This document shows positions 23,734 to 44,824 of a stretch of 64,000 bases of DNA, piece by piece; position 1 is the first letter of the stretch, and the number at the start of each line of letters is the position of its first letter. Source of the DNA: Ceratothoa steindachneri (taxonomy: Eukaryota; Arthropoda; Malacostraca; Isopoda; Cymothoidae); the NCBI GenBank assembly GCA_963969495.1, contig OZ018317.1:225848099-225912098 (forward strand), written 5' to 3'. Below the pieces are notes generated by a model. The model was not told the DNA's origin. It saw only the letters and a list, made by a program, of their open reading frames with translations, and made no database searches. The translations under genes were made by a program, and so were the position numbers.

Positions 23734-25451
23734 TCACTTATATATTTGTTCACTAGTTGCTTTTTTGAAGGTTAAGTAATACTCCGAAGTCTTGTGGCCA
23801 TTCTCCATTACCTTAAAGACAGCTGGATCGATGGTGTGTAAGTACGGTCCGGGATGTAATTCGCGCGCTCCATCAATAGTCCACCTATTTCTTTCGGGGA
23901 CCATGGTCCTTCGTATGTCCATTTGTATTTGCCTTTGTTGATTCCGTCGAGCAGTTTTTCATTGTCTCCCTTAAAGGGTCAGCATTGAGGGGGACCATGG
24001 ACTTTAAGGTGTACGTCCATGGCGTCGAAGAAACAGCCTCGCAGAAGGATATCCCTTTTCTCCGTAAGTGGAAATCCCGGCTACTTTAGCATTTCACCTT
24101 CGTCTGAGCTTTCTTGAGATTGGCTTGTTTCCTCTTCTTTATTTGCCTCTTGTTCCACTTCTCTTTTCTTTTTTCTTATTTGTTTTTTCTTCTTTGTGAA
24201 CTTGTTAGTGTTTCCGTATTTTACCAAGTCTTCTTCCGTTGTGACTTCTTCCTCCGATGTTTTATAGGACTGATTCACAACCTCTTTTCCAGTGTTCTTT
24301 TGCTGGGCAACGTCGATGAATTGTATCCTTAACATTTCTTGCGATGCGGGGTTGGGCGGGAACCAAACCTTTTTCTGAAACCCGTTCTTTTGCAAGAGAT
24401 GATTTAAGTCCTGTGCAAAGGAGTCGGGGTTAGCTAGATTTGCTAAGTAAGCAAAGACGATCATGGTCATAATCTCCTTGGACTTACCTGGCATTACAAG
24501 TTTTGGGGCAGAGTTTTCTGTGTTGCTGGTCTTGGTTGATGCCACTGCCTTGACGTAGGTCTTTGATTTTGCCTCCTTTACCTGCTTCATCCCATCGCGT
24601 TTTGCCCGAATGGCTTCCGTGCGGATGGGACACCTCATGGCCACTGCTTTATGGTCCCCTCCGCAGTTAGCGCATTTTTGTCTCTCGGAAGTGCACTCTT
24701 TCCATCCGTGACCGAGTCTGGAGCAGATGGAGCAAGTGACGTCAGCCGCCATACATTATTTAGTGGGATGGTGTTACACGGCCAGGCAGCGTTGGCAGAA
24801 CTCGAGTTGAATAAACTACTCCGCTTCAACTTGTTCTGGGGCGATACGAAGGAAGAATCCCAGGAGTCCATCCTGGATGGACCTCTGAGCCATCTCGATG
24901 TTTGCAAAGATTACTTTGACTATGTTTTTACCGAATTTTTCGACTTTGTCGATTTTTGCACAATTCTTTTGTTTAGTTAGCTCGACCTTGATGTCCTCAC
25001 AACAAGAGTTGTCCGCGAAGAACGGGTCGAGTCTCCTAAGTATGATAGTTTGGCGTGCGAGGATTTCCTTGAAGAGAACAGCTTCGAGGCCAATCGCACG
25101 TAGGGGCTCATTGGCTTTCTCCGATATCTTCGTCTTTCCAGCACACTGCTGCGTAGCCGTTGGGGGTATCAATGAGCCTAATTAGAGATATATTGAGCAT
25201 ACCGAAGATGGTTTGCATGACTATTGGAATTGGTGCTTTGGTCGCTCCACCGATAGTGCAGAGGCGCACCTTCTTTTAGTCCCGGTTGGGAGGCCCAATG
25301 GCCCCCTTCGGGCTTTTTACTCCTCTACGTATGATCCATCTTCTTCTAGAGGATATTCTTGTTCCGAATCATGAGGCTCGAATATGAGATTGTCTGGTGA
25401 GTGCATCTTAGCATACCTTACCCTTAACTTTTCCTCCTTTGCCACGACCAT
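23734..25451 (-). pseudogene. ORF1 relic of a second, related LINE family
   Basis: Minus-strand reading begins near ATG 25451 (MVVAKEEKLRVRY), shifts frame around 25310 and 25170, continues through ILRRLDPFFADNSCCEDIKV (25172-24816), and then 24752-24081 with zinc knuckles CSICSRLGHGWKEC and CANCGGDHKAVAMRC, followed by FAQDLNHLLQKNG and WFPPNPASQ. These blocks match those in the 21.2-22.7-kb ORF1, so the two are homologous but clearly different families. The C-terminus is an acidic/lysine-rich tail ending at a stop at 24081. No endonuclease or RT follows before 23.7 kb, so this copy is only a 5' part. Confidence 0.75.
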
Positions 25452-35879: not shown

Positions 35880-36917
35880 ATAGTTGTCAAGGACAATTCA
35901 CATTCAATAACGAAACATATTTTCAAATATATGGGGTGGGCATGGACAGCCCCTTGGGCCCTGTCTTCGCCGATATCTTTATTTCCTGGTTCGAAGATCA
36001 ACTATTCAACTAAAATTCAGAAAATATTAGACCTATTCTCTACCGCCTTTTTTTAAGATACATACCTCCTATTCAACTCCGAAGATTTCTTTGCAAATAT
36101 CCTACAACTCGTCAACCTCATACATCCCATTATCCACTTTACCTACGTAAAAGAGCTCAATGGTTCCTACTGGATTCTTAACCAATATTTTTCGAAAACC
36201 AACCTCCAGTGTTCAAGGCCTCAACTTCTTCAGTTTCTGTAACCTTTCATTCAAAATTAGTGCAATAAAAACACTAATATTCCGTGCCTGCAACATTTGC
36301 TCAACCTACACTGATTTCCACAATGAAGTTGAATTTTTGTGCAATTACTTCAAAGGGAACGGCTTTCCCGTGTCGCTGGTAGAGAAAATTACATCCAATT
36401 TTTTAAACAACCTCTACCAACCGAAATTAAAACTTCCTACTGTATGTGAAGACACCCGTTATATAGGTTTCCAGGATATGGGTTTCTTAAACCCAAAATT
36501 CTTAAAAGAAATAACAACAATATTAAAGAAATTCTTTTATCATACTGAGTTTAAGATCATTTTTTTTAAAATAAACATCTTCTTGGACAATATTTTAATT
36601 GTAAAGACAGAATGCCGCCGGAAGCCAAGTGCTCCGTCATTTACAAATTCACTTGCCCCGGATGCAATTTGGGTACTTACATAGGAAGTACGGTGCGCTC
36701 GCTGAAGGCGAGATTCTGTTCTCATCTGGGAATTAGCCACAGGACCGAAAGGGTTCTATCAAAGAAAGAGTTTTCACCTGTTCGGCTACATTTTATCCTA
36801 TGTAAAACTGATGTATCCATCGAAGATTTTAAAATCTTAAAGACTATTCCTGGCCCATTATCCTTACGTATTCAAGAATCAATGTTCAGAATTTTTTTTT
36901 CCAACTCTAAATTCTGA
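35880..36917 (+). pseudogene. Penelope-like element: RT C-terminal part and GIY-YIG endonuclease
   Basis: Penelope-like elements encode a telomerase-related RT fused to a GIY-YIG nuclease. Here YGVGMDSPLGPVFADIF (~35930) matches the RT palm; the YxDD segment that should follow is destroyed near 36050. After a frame change, 36160-36600 reads FRKPTSSVQGLNFFSFC and FRACNICSTYTDFHNEVEFL, typical of the RT thumb side. In another frame (36612-36917) CSVIYKFTCPGCNLGTYIGS gives the GIY and YIG halves with the CxxC pair, then SLKARFCSH with the conserved Arg. The element is 5'-truncated and frameshifted. Its 3' flank is where the LTR element inserted at 37300. Confidence 0.85.
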
Positions 36918-37299
36918 CTCTTCTTCCCACCTACTTCTCAAAATAAACCAACCCCCTGAATTTTTCTTTTTTCTTGCACCCCTCACACTTTCCCGCCCAG
37001 TCTCCGTTTAACGGCTATTCGCAAAAGGCTAGTGTTTTTCCTTAAATGCTATCCAGTGTTATCTCCATTTATTTTTGTTAAATTCCATTATCAATTGAAG
37101 TAACAATTCAGTAACCTGTAAAGCTCTATATTTCCCCTGCCCATATTTTAAGACTGATTCATCTACTACACCCATAATTTTTGAATGTTTAAATTATCAA
37201 CGTATAATATTAGTCTTTTACGAATTTTTGTAATTTTTCCATTACCAGAAGATAGATGAACCATGCGCCTGAAACGTTGTACACATCACGTAAACAAAT

Positions 37300-38442
37300 T
37301 GTCACACACGTAATATCTGATAATTTGACTTTATTTTCTGACGAGAGCTGTGACGTGATATCGTGGGACCTACGTTCGCTTAATTGAGGCTGACACGTCA
37401 TCCAAAGGAATTCTAGAATTTTCGTTCGCTTTGATCGGCCAGTTTCCCTCCTAATTATTTTATTGAATATTAAATTGGATTAAGATTATTGCGTTTTTGT
37501 CATGAAAGAAAGCATTTGATGTCTGGAGTTAAGAATTCTCATTGTATGTTGATGTAGCATTGGGATTTTGAATGATCCGTATTTGTTAGTGTTCCGAGGA
37601 ATTCAATGTCGAGGACTTCATTCTTCACAGAAGACAGACCATTTTTTTTTGTGCTTGGAGAAGAAAGTTGTGTTCGGGAGCAGAGTGGATTTCGTGTACT
37701 TATTTTCCGGTTTCGTGCGTCTCGGAAGGCTATTGCTATTTAGGCTATTGCTATTTAGGCTATTGCTATTTAAGGCTATTGTAATTTAAGGCTATTGTAA
37801 TTTAAGGCTATCCTGATTTAAGGCTACCGTGAGTTGGGTTACCGTGAGTTAAGGTTACCCTGAGTTAAGTTTATTGTGGTTGATTGACTTAGTATAAGAC
37901 AACTGGCAGAGTTGTACCCCTTTTGCATTTTAATGCGGGTTTACCGCGAGTGTTGTGCCTCTCGTGCATCTTTGGTAGGACAACCGTGTGTGGTGTCCTT
38001 GTTTTTGTGTGGCCCATACTAGGCCTGATATTGGTGGTCGTGAGTGCTCCTTTATTTTTGTACACGTAGGTACATTGTAGTTACGTTACCGGTGAGTGCT
38101 TTCCTCTGTGGCTCAACCTTCTTTCTCCGTGGTCTCATAGATAGGAATATCATACGTGCGTTATTTTTGTGTACATATTTGTTCTTGTGTCTTCCATACT
38201 CTAAATATTTTTACATGTTCCAAAAGGTCATTCCTCAGCTCAAACTATCAAGGTTGTAATTAATTTTTAGGTCCTTTCTCTGATAATTTAGTCTTAGAAT
38301 ATATCGGCATTTTCAAGTCGATTCATTTATCAAACATTTGTAAATAAAGTTTTTTCGTTTTAAGTCGACGCATCTTCTATCCTTGGCTATCAACTTTTGA
38401 GGTAAAGAATTTGGGCATGTCACCTGACCCGAGTTTGTGACA
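37300..38442 (+). repeat. 5' LTR (1143 bp)
   Basis: TGTCACACAC to GTTTGTGACA. Contains a short run of ggctattgYtatttA and gagttaaggttacc units (37735-37870) that corresponds to the huge array in the 3' LTR. A polyadenylation signal AATAAA is intact at ~38343. Confidence 0.95.
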
Positions 38443-38446
38443 TTAA

Positions 38447-38464
38447 TGGCGACCTTGCCAGGAT
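38447..38464 (+). promoter_or_regulatory. Primer-binding site
   Basis: TGGCGACCTTGCCAGGAT starts 4 bases after the 5' LTR. TGG is the complement of tRNA CCA. The TGGCGACC start resembles the primer sites of 412/mdg1-type gypsy elements, which use a tRNA-Arg; the exact tRNA here is an inference. Confidence 0.8.
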
Positions 38465-38717
38465 AGCTTTATAGGAGAGTATCGAACGTCGACTTGAAAT
38501 AGAAAACCTTGAGAGCAGCGATAGAATGTCGTATTTTCGGGTGAAACTTTGATAGACGCTTTTAGAGAAATTTGGTGGTACCATATTTATTTATTTTTTA
38601 TGTATTCATATATACTTTTTACGTTGATATTCCGCTATTTTGGGGGTGTATGCTCTTTATATTGCATTTTGGTTGGGTATTGTGATATATATATATAGAT
38701 AATTACCTACTTTTACC

Positions 38718-39848
38718 ATGGAAAAAATGCTGCAGGAGGCCAAACTTCTTGGTTTGGATGGCAAAGAAATACAAGATTATGTCAGAGAACAACAGGCAGC
38801 TGCGCGTGAGGAGAGAAGAGCTGAGTGGAAGGCTATTAAACTCCAAGCCGAGCAGGAGGCCGCTAAACTCCAAGCTGAGCAGGCAGCCGCTAAACTCCAA
38901 GCTGAGCAGGCAGCTGCTAAACTCCAAGCTAAGCAGGCAGCTGCTAAACTCCAAACTGAGCAGGCAGCTACGCGTGAAGAAAGAGAAGCCGACCACGAAG
39001 AAAAGCAGCGGAAGCACGAACTTGAGATGAAAAGGTTGGAACTCGAGTTAGCTCGTACCACCGCTAGTCCGGCTGCTGTCACGTCTGCGAAAATTCCAAA
39101 ATTGCCCTGCTTCGTCGATGGGAAGGATGCCATCGATAGTTACCTTCTACGATTTGAGAGATTTGCCAGGCAGCAGGGATGGCATGAAAACCAATGGGAC
39201 ACCGCATTAAGTGCATTGTTGGCTGGAAGGGCATTAGAGACATATTCAAGAATGCCCGATGAAGATGCGGCACAATATAATTTGCTTAAGTCCGCCTTAT
39301 TCGTAAGGTATGATTTAACAGAAGATGGCTACCGGAAAAAATTCCGTAGTTCGAAGCCTGAAACGTGCGAAAGTCCGGATCAGTTCATCGATTGGCTACG
39401 GAACTATCTGATGAAATGGATAAGGCTATCGAATACTGATGAAAGCTTTGAGGTTCTGGTAAATTTGTTCATTAAGGAGCAGTTCATGGATGCAGTATCA
39501 CAGGACCTGGCCATTCATTTGCGAGAGCGGAATCCAAAAACGCTCCAAGGCATTGGAAACATGGCTGCGCAGTACTTGACGGCACACCATGAAACTCTAT
39601 CATCATCTCGGCCGAAGTCACTTTCTCACATCGATTTTTGTTCTGACCAAGGATCCTTGAACCACCGAAAAGGCTTGACCGACCGCGCCATCTCGCAGAG
39701 ACCAGCGCAGAAGTGTTTTCGATGCGGTAAACCAGGGCACGCAGCAAGAGAGTGTTGGTCTAATCCTATTTCCCCCAGCCGGCAATCAAGTGTTTCAAAT
39801 GTGGCAAGCCTGGCCACAGAATACAAAATTGCAGGGAACGGACGGTAA
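38718..39848 (+). CDS. gag: Gag-like protein with coiled coil, SCAN-like domain and zinc knuckle
   Basis: 376-residue open frame, probably intact in its first ~350 residues. Residues 41-87 are five 9-residue repeats of KLQAEQAAA type (27-bp DNA repeat), giving a strong helical coiled coil with the surrounding charged residues. Residues ~127-300 form the retrotransposon gag core (PKLPCFVDGKDAIDSYLLRF ... FIDWLRNYLMKWIRL ... LVNLFIKEQF), of the SCAN-like type found in many metazoan gypsy elements, which drives particle assembly. Residues 333-346 are a zinc knuckle, CFRCGKPGHAAREC. A second knuckle, CFKCGKPGHRIQNC at ~39791, follows in another frame, so a frameshift lies between them and the annotated C-terminus is not original. 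Confidence 0.9.
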   Translation: MEKMLQEAKLLGLDGKEIQDYVREQQAAAREERRAEWKAIKLQAEQEAAKLQAEQAAAKLQAEQAAAKLQAKQAAAKLQTEQAATREEREADHEEKQRKHELEMKRLELELARTTASPAAVTSAKIPKLPCFVDGKDAIDSYLLRFERFARQQGWHENQWDTALSALLAGRALETYSRMPDEDAAQYNLLKSALFVRYDLTEDGYRKKFRSSKPETCESPDQFIDWLRNYLMKWIRLSNTDESFEVLVNLFIKEQFMDAVSQDLAIHLRERNPKTLQGIGNMAAQYLTAHHETLSSSRPKSLSHIDFCSDQGSLNHRKGLTDRAISQRPAQKCFRCGKPGHAARECWSNPISPSRQSSVSNVASLATEYKIAGNGR

Positions 39849-40334
39849 ATATTGCAACATCAGTTTAAAAGGACACTGAGAGCCATCCCACAGAAATGTC
39901 CGCATTATGCGCCATAGCAAACGAGGAATACGCTGAGAAAGCTACCTAAAAGGAGATTGAGTCTTTTGTGAAAGATAACAAGCTACTCCTACCCAACGGG
40001 AAGTTTGTGCCTTACTTGGACGCGTGTTTCGTGAGTAGGAGAGGCAGTTCCATGCCTGTAACCATGGAGAGAGTTGGAAATCAACTGGTCGACACACTAA
40101 GAGATACAGGCTGTAGTGGTATCATAGTGAGGAAATCCCTTGTATCAGACAACCAGCTCACAGGAAAAATCACTGCATTGAGGTTTGTGGACGGCACGTT
40201 AAAAGATCCACATTGACACCCCCTACTTAACCGGTGAAGTGGATGCAGTATGCATAGAGAACTCCATATGTGTGCAGGTGATTGGAAATGTCCCCAAGGC
40301 TCTCCCTGCGGATAGTCCTGACCCCAAATGGCAG
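39788..40334 (+). pseudogene. Broken aspartic protease region
   Basis: Continues from the second zinc knuckle in a frame different from gag, with in-frame stops near 39868 and 39949. The open part 39968-40216 reads LLPNGKFVPY ... VDTLRDTGCSGIIVRKSLV, where DTG is the retropepsin catalytic triad (~40105). A frameshift near 40215 separates it from TPYLTGEVDAVCI and the VIGNVP motif (~40270-40290), which mark the end of the protease in this gag-pol group. The PDPKWQ at ~40325 is the last retrotransposon-like sequence before eIF3a. Confidence 0.8.
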
Positions 40335-41095
40335 GAGAAGATGGAGCCGTTACACGCCCAAGCCATCCAGCTCTACCAGCAGACGCGCTTGAAGGAGCAC
40401 CAGCTCATTCTCCAGCACCCGCGCAGAGAAGCCAGCAAGTGCGAGAAGAAGCTAAAAGACTTCAACGTTCGATTGGAGTTCGAGCGCAGGAACCGACCCC
40501 TCGAACGCAAGGAGCAGAGGCGCACGGAACGGCGCGAAGCCTTCTATCGCCAGAAGGAGGAAGAGGAGCAGTCCCTGCGTGATGAACTGAAGAAGCAGCA
40601 CGAATAGGAAGAGAGGAAGAAGTTGGAACTCTCAAAGGAGGAGGAAGAGCAATTAATCCGTCGCAAGGGGGGCGACCTGCAGCGGGAAAAAATTCCTACC
40701 CGCTCAGACGCCGAGCGCAATGGCGAAATCAAATAGGACAAGTCAACTCCTTGGCGCCCCACCAAGAATATGGCGTGGCGCGATAAGAAAAAGGCAAAGA
40801 TCGACACGAGGCGTATCAAGGACGAAGGGCGAGAGCCCCTGTTGGAGCGCCTATCGAGCCGGGACATCCGGTGAATGGATCCGCCCAAGGAGAAGCCCCC
40901 ACCGAGCCGCAACGGCAACGAGCGCTGGAGGAGCGACAGACGAGACACCTCGGCGCAAGGACGACCGCCGAGGACCTTCTAAAGCTGACGAAGCAACCAC
41001 ATGGAGAAGATCGGAGCCTGTAAGCGAGCCTAAGAAGTTCGGTTTTCGAAGTCAGCCGAAGAAGACTTCTAATGCCTGGCGGGTCGGCGGCCATG
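40335..41095 (+). pseudogene. eIF3a: Captured host eIF3a C-terminal segment
   Basis: eIF3a is the largest subunit of translation initiation factor 3. One frame from ~40335 reads eIF3a-like sequence: KKLKDFNVRLEFERRNRPLE, RKEQRRTERREAFYRQKEEE, then EQSLRDELKKQ, matching the conserved LKxFxxRLxxERxxR...ERRxxxYRxKEEEEQ block of animal eIF3a. It is followed by the Trp-Arg-rich tail typical of the family (STPWRPTKN, AWRDKKK, ERWRSDRR and, after a frameshift near 40975, TTWRRSEP and NAWRVGG). Stops occur at 40605 (TAG), 40734 (TAG) and ~40872 (TGA). No intron-like gap and no poly(A) tail are visible. It shares the strand of gag and fills the space where RT, RNase H and integrase belong. Human eIF3a is ~1380 residues; about 250 are represented. 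Confidence 0.85.
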
Positions 41096-41175
41096 GGTCA
41101 TTACCCGCCAATCAGGATCCAACGTGTGTGTCTGGGATAAATTTTATTGGTAAATTTATTCTCAGTGGGGGGATA
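41096..41175 (+). promoter_or_regulatory. Interior 3' end with polypurine tract
   Basis: AGTGGGGGGATA directly precedes the 3' LTR at 41176 and serves as plus-strand primer in LTR elements. The sequence from ~41100 on (ISGKFILSGG-type reading) looks like retrotransposon 3' end again. Confidence 0.8.
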
Positions 41176-43418
41176 TGTCACACACGTAATATCTGATAAT
41201 TTGACTTTATTTTCTGACGAGAGCTGTGACGTGATATCGTGGGACCTACGTTCGCTTAATTGAGGCTGACACGTCATCCAAAGGAATTCTAGAATTTTCG
41301 TTCGCTTTGATCGGCCAGATTCCCTCCTAAATATTTTATTGAATATTAAATTGGATTAAGATTATTGCGTTTATGTCATGAAAGAAAGCATTGGATGTCT
41401 GGAGTTAAGAATTCTCATTGTATGTTGATGTAGCATTGGGATTTTGAATGATCCGTATTTGTTAGTGTTCCGAGGAATTCAATGTCGAGGCCTTCATTCT
41501 TCACAGAAGACAGACCATTTTTTTGTGTTTGGAGAAGAAAGTTGTGTTCGGGAGCAGAGTGGATTTCGTGTACTTATTTTCCGGTTTCGTGCGTCTCGGA
41601 AGGCTATTGCTATTTAGGCTATTGCTATTTAAGGCTATTGTAATTTAAAGCCATCCTGAGTTAAGGTTACCGTGAGTTAGTTTACCGTGAGTTAGTTTAC
41701 CGTGAGTTAAGGTTGCCCTGAGTTAAGGTTGCCCTGAGTTAAGGTTGCCCTGAGTTAAGGTTGCCCTGAGTTAAGGTTGCCCTGAGTTAAGGTTGCCCTG
41801 AGTTAAGGTTGCCCTGGGTTAAGGTTGCCCTGGGTTAAGGTTGCCCTGGGTTAAGGTTGCCCTGGGTTAAGGTTGCCCCGAGTTAAGGTTGCCCCGAGTT
41901 AAGGTTGCCCCGAGTTAAGGTTGCCCCGAGTTAAGGTTGCCCCGAGTTAAGGTTGCCCCGAGTTAAGGTTGCCCCGAGTTAAGGTTGCCCCGAGTTAAGG
42001 TTGCCCCGAGTTAAGGTTGCCCCGAGTTAAGGTTGCCCCGAGTTAAGGTTGCCCCGAGTTAAGGTTGCCCCGAGTTAAGGTTGCCCCGAGTTAAGGTTGC
42101 CCCGAGTTAAGGTTGCCCCGAGTTAAGGTTGCCCCGAGTTAAGGTTGCCCCGAGTTAAGGTTGCCCCGAGTTAAGGTTGCCCCGAGTTAAGGTTGCCCCG
42201 AGTTAAGGTTGCCCCGAGTTAAGGTTGCCCCGAGTTAAGGTTGCCCCGAGTTAAGGTTGCCCCGAGTAGCGGTTGCCCCGAGTAGCGGTTGCCCCGAGTA
42301 GCGGTTGCCCCGAGTAGCGGTTACCCCGAGTAGCGGTTACCCCGAGTAGCGGTTACCCCGAGTAGCGGTTACCCCGAGTAGCGGTTACCCCGAGTAGCGG
42401 TTACCCCGAGTAGCGGTTACCCCGAGTAGCGGTTACCCCGAGTAGCGGTTACCCCGAGTAGCGGTTACCCCGAGTAGCGGTTACCCCGAGTAGCGGTTAC
42501 CCCGAGTAGCGGTTACCCCGAGTAGCGGTTACCCCGAGTAGCGGTTACCCCGAGTAGCGGTTACCCCGAGTAGCGGTTACCCCGAGTAGCGGTTACCCCG
42601 AGTAGCGGTTACCCCGAGTAGCGGTTACCCCGAGTAGCGGTTACCCCGAGTAGCGGTTACCCCGAGTAGCGGTTACCCCGAGTAGCGGTTACCCCGAGTA
42701 GCGGTTACCCCGAGTTACGGTTACCCCGAGTTACGGTTACCCCGAGTTACGGTTACCCCGAGTTACGGTTACCCCGAGTTACGGTTACCCCGAGTTACGG
42801 TTACCCCGAGTTACGGTTACCCTGAGTTACGGTTACCCTGAGTTAAGGTTATTGTGGTTGATTGACTTAGTGTAAAACAACCGGCAGAGTTGTACCCCTT
42901 TTGCATTTTAGTGCGGGTTTACCGCGAGTGTTGTGCCTCTCGTGCACCTTTGGTAGGACAACCGTGTGTGGTGTCCTTGTTTTGTGTGGCCCATACTAGG
43001 CCTGATATTGGTGGTCGTAAGTGTTTCTTTTTTTGTAAGCGTAGATACATTGTAGTTACGTTACCGGTGAGTGCTTTCCTCTGTGGCTCAACTTTCTTTC
43101 TCCCTGGTCTCATAGATAGGTATGTCATACGTGCGTTATTTTTGTGTACATATTTGTTCTTGTATCTTCTATACTCTAAATATTTTTACATGTTCCAAAA
43201 GGTAATTCCTTAGCTCGAGCTATCAAGGTTATTATTAATTTTTAGGTCCTTTCTCTGATAATTTAGTCTTGGAATATAGCGGCATTTTCAAGTCGATTCA
43301 TTTATCAAACATTTGTAAACAAGGTTTTTTTCGTTTTAAGTCGACGCATCTTCTATCCTTGGCTATCAACCTTTGGGTTAAAGAATCTGGGCATGTCACC
43401 TTTCCCCAGTTTGTGACA
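41176..43418 (+). repeat. 3' LTR (2243 bp), enlarged by a minisatellite
   Basis: Collinear with the 5' LTR at both ends (41176-41650 with 37300-37770; 42840-43418 with 37860-38442). About 1.1 kb longer, entirely from the 16-bp array. The poly(A) signal AATAAA of the 5' LTR is AACAAG here (~43317). Confidence 0.95.
41655..42850. repeat. 16-bp minisatellite inside the 3' LTR
   Basis: About 70-75 tandem 16-bp units. Variants are arranged in ordered blocks: AAGGTTGCCCTGAGTT, AAGGTTGCCCTGGGTT, AAGGTTGCCCCGAGTT (longest early block), then CGGTTGCCCCGAGTAG, CGGTTACCCCGAGTAG, CGGTTACCCCGAGTTA and back to CCCTGAGTTA. The 5' LTR keeps only three or four related units. Ordered blocks point to successive local duplications. 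Confidence 0.97.
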
Positions 43419-43509
43419 CAAATGAACTTCCTCTTTTTCGTCATATCCTTCCTCCTGCAAACTAAATTACAGCTCAATAGGAGAAGCCCTTATCAATATA
43501 TATATAAAA

Positions 43510-44824
43510 GGTTATTCAAAAAGAATGAACCGATTTCATGACGCATTGCTTCATTTTTCAAGCATCGTCATGGAATGTGTCAGTGACTATTTGGAAGAGG
43601 GTTTTTTTAAGTTTTGAATGGCTGCCACAAGGGTGATGGAGTCACCTCGCGTCGTTCCTCCGGCAAAGTTAAGTTGTTTCTTTACCCTCGGAATGGTGAC
43701 TCCTCAGCAAAAGGCGTTCCGCGTTCTGCGTTCGCGAAAACAAATTCGGTTGTCACGGTGCAGCGTTCTTTTCGAAGGCGATTTGACATTAATGCGCCAT
43801 CTCCTAAGAACATTCGACAGTTTCAAGATGGCGGGTATCTGTGTAAAGGAAAAAGTCCAGGACAATCACGAGTTTTGGCGGAACAAGTGGCGAGAATCCG
43901 TGTTGCATTTGAGGGGAGCCCGCCGTGAGCTTGCGATCCCTAAATCCACTATCTGGCGTGTGCTAAGAAGACTTCTACATTTGAAACCGTACAGACTACG
44001 CCTCGTTCAGGCACTTACCAAAGACGACAAGAGGAAGCGGATGGAATTTTGCGATTCGATGCTGGATATGATGGAAGATGAAACCTTCATTTCACTTTTA
44101 TTTTTTTAGTGATGAAGTGATTTTTCACTTGCGCGGCACAGTCAATCGTCACAATGTGCGTATTTGGGGAATAGAGCACTCACATCAAACAGTTGAGCAT
44201 GAAAGAAATTCCCCTAAGGTGAACATCTTCTGTGCTGTGTGTCGGGACAAGGTTTATGGTCCCTTTTTCTTTGAAGGAGACACCGTTACAGGGCAAACCT
44301 CTCACCATATGCTCCAAAGCTGGCTCTTCACTTCAGGGCAAGCAGATTTGCATGACTTCATTTTTCAAGAAGATGGAGCACCGCCCCATTGACACCTGAT
44401 GGTTCGAGCTTTTTTAGATGAAAAAGTGCCCCAGCGATGGATTGGTCGGAAGGGAGCCCAAGACCTTGCTCTTTGTGCTTGGCCTGCGCGATCCCCAGAC
44501 CTGACCGTGTGTGATTTTTTCTTGTGAGGATATGTAAAATATCGCGTTTATGTTTCACCGCTACCCACTAACCTCGATGACCTTAAACATCGAATAACAA
44601 CAGCGATCAACTCAGTGGATCCTTGATATGCTGATACGCGTCTGGGAGGAATTCTCTTATCGCATTGATGTTGCCCGTGCTGCAGGTAGTGGCCACATTG
44701 AACACTTGTAAGATAGGAAATAAAATTTGATTGTGAGCAGAATACTTGTGACTTTGCTGGATTTTTCAATTGCTTTTCCTTAATAAAATATTGCCTAATG
44801 AAATAAGTTAATTCTTTTTTAACA

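What the first reader, a model, noticed from the sequence alone, without database searches (positions are those of the whole stretch)
40335..41095. Host eIF3a coding sequence captured inside an LTR retrotransposon
Seen: in an element with matching LTR ends, target duplication, primer site, gag and protease, the space for RT/RNase H/integrase instead encodes an eIF3a-like segment on the same strand. The match covers a specific conserved block (ERRNRPLERKEQRR, YRQKEEEEQ) and the WR-rich tail. No intron-like gaps and no poly(A) tail, so a processed pseudogene dropped into the element is less likely. Known: retroviral and rare plant LTR-element capture of cellular cDNA. Inference: template switching onto eIF3a mRNA made a gag-protease-eIF3a hybrid that then retrotransposed, since both LTRs and a target duplication enclose it. 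Animal LTR elements carrying a translation-factor fragment would be unusual.
Basis: partly seen in the sequence, partly recalled or inferred. Interest (0 to 1): 0.92.

Follow-up and report, generated by a model that had tools for sequence, protein, structure and literature searches.

The report
Retrotransposon family carrying captured eIF3a mRNA
A mobile genetic element in an unnamed invertebrate replaced its own replication enzymes with a spliced piece of a host translation-factor gene and still spread to dozens of places in the genome, leaving copies that show the capture step by step.

Summary
At 37295-43423 lies an LTR element (TSD CAAAT, two LTRs, gag, protease) whose pol region is replaced by host eIF3a coding sequence. 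The host eIF3a gene lies about 14 Mb away on the same contig. The piece matches parts of eight exons; across the family five introns are removed exactly at GT/AG sites (four in the window copy), with no 3'UTR or poly(A).

It is a family: at least 58 eIF3a-bearing loci and at least 24 loci with the matching RT, none shared among those found. The RT-bearing relative has the Gmr1 order (gag-PR-IN-RT-RH). Four early-form copies keep part of integrase and join eIF3a at an 8-nt microhomology (GCCAGAAG), showing where reverse transcriptase switched template. Later copies lost the integrase remnant and parts of eIF3a.

On internal branches gag and PR are under purifying selection (omega 0.21, 0.38); eIF3a residues drift neutrally (1.2-1.3), although stops are rarer than expected. 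Best reading: a helper-dependent transducing LTR retrotransposon with eIF3a mostly as cargo. Capture by LTR elements is known in plants and animals; this multi-copy family with intermediates looks unusual, but the main animal survey (Tan 2016) was not readable.

The parts
37295..37299 (+). target-site duplication CAAAT, left
   Evidence: sequence
37300..38442 (+). 5' LTR (TGTCACAC...TTTGTGACA)
   Evidence: direct repeat; ends read
38447..38464 (+). likely primer-binding site (TGGCGACC...); tRNA not tested
   Evidence: position just inside the LTR; motif recalled
38703..39848 (+). gag open frame (ATG at 38718), SCAN-like region and CCHC knuckle
   Evidence: Pfam SCAN E 3.3e-8, zf-CCHC E 8.5e-5; family members 62-92% identical elsewhere
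39950..40335 (+). protease-like region (RDTGCSG), frame broken in this copy
   Evidence: PR of copy L010 aligns to P0122 and P0123; no Pfam match for 39950-40213
40336..41118 (+). captured eIF3a coding sequence (whole)
   Evidence: blastn to host gene exons
40332..40416 (+). matches host exon A (C1:239946302-239946386)
   Evidence: 94%
40414..40460 (+). matches host exon A2, joined by an internal deletion
   Evidence: 85%
40444..40520 (+). matches host exon B, joined by an internal deletion
   Evidence: 92%
40518..40719 (+). host exon C, joined to B at the splice site
   Evidence: 91%; GT/AG
40720..40770 (+). host exon D, joined to C at the splice site
   Evidence: 90%; GT/AG
40769..40960 (+). 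host exon E without its 3' end, joined to D at the splice site
   Evidence: 92%; GT/AG
40947..41037 (+). 3' part of host exon F (first part deleted in this subfamily, so the E|F splice junction is missing here)
   Evidence: 90%
41044..41118 (+). 5' part of last coding host exon G, joined to F at the splice site; ends 157 nt before the host stop
   Evidence: 87%
41119..41175 (+). element 3' tail and purine tract, shared with the RT-bearing relative from 41124 on
   Evidence: L072 2229-, 96%
41176..43418 (+). 3' LTR with an expanded 16-bp minisatellite
43419..43423 (+). target-site duplication CAAAT, right

Best explanation
A Gmr1-like Ty3/gypsy element (gag-PR-IN-RT-RH) packaged a spliced host eIF3a mRNA. 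During minus-strand synthesis the reverse transcriptase switched from the element's 3' tail onto the eIF3a mRNA inside its last coding exon, copied it with internal jumps, and switched back into integrase at the 8-nt match GCCAGAAG. The result, LTR-gag-PR-IN(zinc-binding part)-eIF3a-LTR, had no RT or RNase H and no complete integrase. It was mobilised in trans by its RT-bearing relative. Descendants shed the integrase remnant (by deletion between the imperfect repeats ATGGCAGGAG and ATGCCAGAAG) and parts of eIF3a, and split into subfamilies; the window holds a decayed copy of the shortest form. Gag and protease stayed under selection; eIF3a was carried largely as neutral sequence. Shown: structure, spliced origin, junctions, subfamily series, selection pattern. 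Inferred: co-packaging, order of switches, help in trans, mechanism of the integrase deletion.
For: Host gene: four PF22591 exons at one locus; captured exons collinear with separate host exons, five junctions (B|C, C|D, D|E, E|F, F|G) at GT/AG sites. Capture ends in exons A and G, both coding; the host sequence just 3' of the capture has one match in the genome, itself. RT-bearing relative: L051 PR-IN frame (Integrase_H2C2 E 9e-22; rve E 2e-6, below its curated cut-off) and L072 RT/RNase H frame plus an LTR 89% identical. The integrase/eIF3a junction is the same in L063, L075 and L076 and, with a few base differences, in L074; I suspected 7 early-form places and read these 4. Integrase matches at six further loci also stop at residue 294-300. 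On the host-rooted eIF3a tree L076, L063 and L075 are basal and L074 falls in the next group. 58 eIF3a loci, 24 RT loci, none within 8 kb of each other (lower bounds). Capture-bearing copies only: internal-branch omega gag 0.21 (22N/41S, p 2e-9), PR 0.38 (19N/19S, p 0.003), eIF3a 1.32 (71N/25S, p 0.27).
Against: The 3' junction has no clear microhomology: five bases (CCAAC) match neither host nor L072 there. Stops in eIF3a on internal branches are fewer than expected (0 against 5.1, p 0.006; FastTree 1 against 6.1, p 0.016), the root branch of the eIF3a tree has omega 0.25 (6N/11S, p 0.007; it mixes host-gene and element change), and subfamily deletions of 3 and 99 nt keep frame, so 'pure cargo' may be too simple. 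L074 has the integrase remnant yet shares the 99-nt deletion with copies that lack the remnant, so integrase was lost more than once or copies recombined. The gag tree rejects a single clade of capture-bearing copies (AU p 0.034), which needs recombination. No expression or mobility data; no RT-bearing copy was shown intact.
Confidence: 0.9

Rival explanations
1. A LINE-made processed eIF3a pseudogene inserted into the element and was then amplified.
For: Intronless sequence.
Against: No 3'UTR or poly(A); the capture ends inside coding exon G; no other place in the genome holds the host sequence past it (1 match, the host). The piece replaces everything from an integrase microhomology to about 18 nt after the RNase H stop, which an insertion alone would not do. 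No target duplication was noticed at the junctions printed, but none was searched for formally.
Confidence: 0.04
2. The Gag-PR-eIF3a protein has a selected job, for example tethering Gag to the translation machinery or to RNA.
For: In-frame fusion with gag-PR; few internal-branch stops; shared 3- and 99-nt deletions keep frame; one fetched copy (L007) has a 630-aa frame through gag, PR and the first part of eIF3a.
Against: Amino-acid change at the neutral rate on internal branches (omega 1.2-1.3) while gag and PR are constrained. Weaker reasons for avoiding stops, such as mRNA decay from a long 3'UTR, suffice.
Confidence: 0.1
3. The segment is an element-own coiled-coil or Lys/Glu-rich region that only resembles eIF3a.
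For: The protein match alone is weak and of low complexity.
Against: 80-97% DNA identity to eight host exons in order, with exact splice junctions.
Confidence: 0.005

Closest known systems
LTR-mediated retroposition in metazoans (Tan et al. 2016, not held; described in PMC5408686 and PMC8232201, passages read)
   Same: spliced host mRNA between LTRs, microsimilarity-guided template switching
   Different: here the chimera keeps gag and PR in frame with the host piece, formed subfamilies and reached at least 58 loci, with capture intermediates still present; whether Tan et al. saw such families I could not check
Bs1 of maize (passages of PMC5408686 and PMC13317346)
   Same: LTR element that took cellular gene fragments into a hybrid reading frame
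   Different: plant; three host genes there, one here; Bs1 copy number not checked
Gmr1-like Ty3/gypsy elements (passages of PMC3587641 and PMC8220671)
   Same: the RT-bearing relative has IN before RT; gag hits the SCAN model
   Different: the eIF3a form has no RT or RNase H
Acute transforming retroviruses (recalled, no call)
   Same: gag-host gene fusion replacing pol, dependent on a helper
   Different: no env or disease link seen, germline amplification; eIF3a residues look neutral

Membership tests
Gmr1-like Ty3/gypsy | integrase upstream of reverse transcriptase | tested here: met
   L051 PR-IN followed by L072 RT/RNase H at the same place; 5 of 5 RT relatives scanned have rve before RVT, chosen from 120 listed because PF00665 was listed for them
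Gmr1-like Ty3/gypsy | SCAN-related Gag | tested here: met
   Pfam SCAN E 3.3e-8; that Gmr1 gag is SCAN-related is recalled; only lists papers holding both terms
Gmr1-like Ty3/gypsy | RT groups with named Gmr1 elements in a tree | not tested
   no labelled Gmr1 reference sequence was at hand
LTR-mediated retroposition | host sequence spliced, flanked by LTRs and element sequence | tested here: met
LTR-mediated retroposition | microhomology at switch points | tested here: met
   5' junction GCCAGAAG; internal jumps AGCG and AGAAG; 3' junction without clear microhomology
LINE-type processed pseudogene | 3'UTR with poly(A) and its own target duplication | tested here: not met
   3'UTR and poly(A): capture ends in coding exon G and no other copy holds the downstream host sequence; own target duplication not formally searched
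Helper-dependent (non-autonomous) LTR element | lacks RT, shares LTR and tail with an RT-bearing relative | tested here: met
   actual help in trans not testable here

The most novel reading that the evidence does not exclude
The eIF3a extension is not mere cargo: the Gag-PR-eIF3a protein, or the eIF3a RNA itself, helped the chimera outcompete its RT-bearing relative (at least 58 loci against at least 24, both counts being capped), for instance by drawing Gag to translating or eIF3-bound RNA, with selection on openness and charge rather than on exact residues.
Probability: 0.1. Interest if true: 0.85.

Novelty: new variant of a known kind. Interest (0 to 1): 0.63.

Why it matters
Here one animal genome keeps the donor gene, the RT-bearing relative, early copies with the integrase/eIF3a junction and later shortened subfamilies, so the path from a template switch to a spreading chimeric family can be read base by base and used to test how helper-dependent elements form and whether captured genes are selected.

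Tried and rejected
Protein search with the 134-aa PR-eIF3a piece: 11 candidates, none scored. A 281-aa region of the L010 frame: 2 hits; their significant alignments cover the zinc-knuckle/PR part (P0123) and PR (P0122), not eIF3a, so no fusion in another species was found in that database; this is weak, since candidates are limited by length and shared words. Naming the species: COX1 from contig C529 reads under code 5 and hits COX1 structures of many organisms. Ending exon B at 25198 gave a frame error and was corrected to 25197. Paper searches listed no report of an eIF3a capture in titles or abstract starts; the lists were capped at 10-15 rows and Tan et al. 2016 is not held.

Rows dropped before counts. 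Selection on eIF3a used 38 of 40 copies given (L018 and L029 too short), gag 43 of 46, PR 44 of 46. The capture-only rerun used 36 gag and 39 PR copies, leaving out L043, L051, L069, L071, L060, L064, the reference and duplicate L018. The first run with relatives gave gag 0.40, PR 0.34, eIF3a 0.99 on internal branches; that eIF3a figure included the branch to the host. LTR divergence came from 8 of 9 pairs tried; L067/L018 had no 3' LTR match. score only part of their candidates (150 of 189, 40 of 71, 150 of 20620, 81 of 76824, 101 of 37356), so counts are lower bounds; the 58 include short fragments and a few segmental duplicates.

Full report
What is in the window. An LTR element runs from 37300 to 43418 between CAAAT duplications. 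It encodes a Gag with a SCAN-like region and a CCHC knuckle, a protease-like stretch with the DTGC motif, and then, on the same strand, eIF3a-like sequence to 41118, a short 3' tail with a purine tract, and the 3' LTR. The protein match to eIF3a alone is weak: four PDB sequences, all eIF3a, E 0.02-0.05.

The donor gene. Pfam PF22591 (eIF3a PCI/TPR) finds four exons at one locus, C1:239930738-239940575, about 14 Mb from the window. DNA comparison of five copies with this gene aligns the element piece to exons A, A2, B, C, D, E, F and G at 80-96% identity; two early copies give 83-97%. At B|C, C|D, D|E, E|F and F|G the exons meet at GT/AG sites, so a spliced mRNA was the source. The window copy lacks E|F, which was lost in a later deletion; longer copies such as L010, L013 and L074 span it. 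The host gene ends in ...GWTTIKR-stop (read). The capture starts inside exon A and stops inside exon G, 157 nt before that stop, so there is no 3'UTR or poly(A). The host sequence just past this limit has one match in the genome, the gene itself. Internal jumps A/A2 and A2/B lie at AGCG and AGAAG matches.

A family and its RT-bearing relative. A 134-aa PR-eIF3a query gives 122 matches, many to PR only; a DNA query over the eIF3a body gives 40 scored loci of 71 candidates, 14 in the short form seen here and 26 with a longer form. Clustering gives 58 eIF3a-bearing loci. Gag relatives form a discrete group of 62-92% identity; the next matches are at 33-39%. Some gag relatives lack eIF3a: L043, L051, L069 and L071 go from PR into integrase. 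At C8:208131247-208138700, L051 and L072 together show PR, integrase (H2C2, and rve below its cut-off), then RT and RNase H, then the same 3' tail and an LTR 89% identical to the window's 5' LTR. IN before RT is the Gmr1 order (passages). RT of this family occurs at 24 scored loci of 74% identity or more before identity falls to 42%; none lies within 8 kb of an eIF3a locus.

The early junction is still in the genome. L063 keeps integrase sequence between PR and eIF3a. Of six further suspected places I fetched three (L074-L076). L063, L075 and L076 run ...GATGCATGCCAGAAG then GAGATGGAG...; L074 shows the same join with a few base differences. Integrase and host share GCCAGAAG at that point. In L076 the bases after the junction equal the host for the stretch printed. 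The L063 locus also has a smaller deletion in exon F (39386 to 39812, against 39319 to 39815 in later copies). On a host-rooted tree of 38 copies L076, L063 and L075 are basal, then a group with a 99-nt deletion that includes L074, then L013/L022, L025, L016 and the derived long and short forms. Later copies lost the integrase remnant, probably by a deletion between ATGGCAGGAG and ATGCCAGAAG. The 3' junction, with CCAAC of unknown origin, reads the same in the window copy and most of the 13 copies printed, and the L063 locus agrees in translation.

Selection. Changes were placed by parsimony and scaled by the spectrum of terminal branches. With capture-bearing copies only, internal branches give omega 0.21 for gag (22N, 41S, p 2e-9) and 0.38 for PR (19N, 19S, p 0.003). 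eIF3a gives 1.32 (71N, 25S, p 0.27), or 1.18 on a FastTree topology (78N, 30S, p 0.47). Terminal eIF3a branches give 1.08 with 50 stops against 45.8 expected; terminal gag branches give 0.79 (p 0.006). So Gag and PR were needed while the family spread; eIF3a residues were not conserved. Against pure cargo: eIF3a stops on internal branches are 0 against 5.1 expected (p 0.006), or 1 against 6.1 (p 0.016); the root branch, which mixes host and element change, has omega 0.25; and the shared 3- and 99-nt deletions keep frame. Keeping the stop codon near the 3' end, to avoid mRNA decay, would explain the stops; that is inference. Ten of 38 copies have no stop among the gap-free aligned eIF3a codons.

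Recombination and age. In the gag tree early copy L063 groups with RT-family L069 and L071, while L043 and L051 group among derived chimeras; forcing all capture-bearing copies together is rejected weakly (AU p 0.034). Since the shared junctions argue for one capture, this suggests chimeric and full RNAs were packaged together and recombined. LTR pairs of eight copies, the window's included, differ by 1.3-6.3% over 109-353 bp. No rate is known, so no date is given. The window copy's LTRs differ at 6 of 432 sites in the first part and 36 of 576 in the second, as if partly converted.

Placement. The event type, LTR-mediated retroposition, is known in animals and plants (passages). The gag-PR-host frame, the spread to dozens of loci, the coexisting RT-bearing relative and the early-form copies make this an unusual, well-documented variant. 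Searches listed no paper reporting an eIF3a capture in their titles or abstract starts; the main animal survey was not readable.

Noticed in passing
41600-42860: The 3' LTR carries an expanded 16-bp minisatellite (over 1 kb); the 5' LTR has only about 120-150 bp of it.
   Followed up: no
37300-38442 and 41176-43418: First part of the two LTRs is 1.4% divergent, second part 6.6%, suggesting partial gene conversion despite intact target duplications.
   Followed up: partly
36570-36917: ORF that looks like a GIY-YIG end of a Penelope-like element just upstream (recalled motif, not searched).
   Followed up: no
43618-44109: ORF resembling part of a mariner-type transposase just downstream (recalled, not searched).
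   Followed up: no
L047 2815-2940: A family member with a fragment of eIF3a in reverse orientation after PR.
   Followed up: partly
G000:C11:80664803-80665369: Two overlapping eIF3a matches in a row, probably a tandem partial duplication within one copy.
   Followed up: no
G000:C529 (29,607 bases): The contig holding COX1 is about twice a usual animal mitochondrial genome; nuclear COX1 matches also exist, for example on C11 and C14.
   Followed up: no
rows at 40-42% identity: Other related elements have many RT copies in open frames of about 490-1500 aa, apparently recently active.
   Followed up: no
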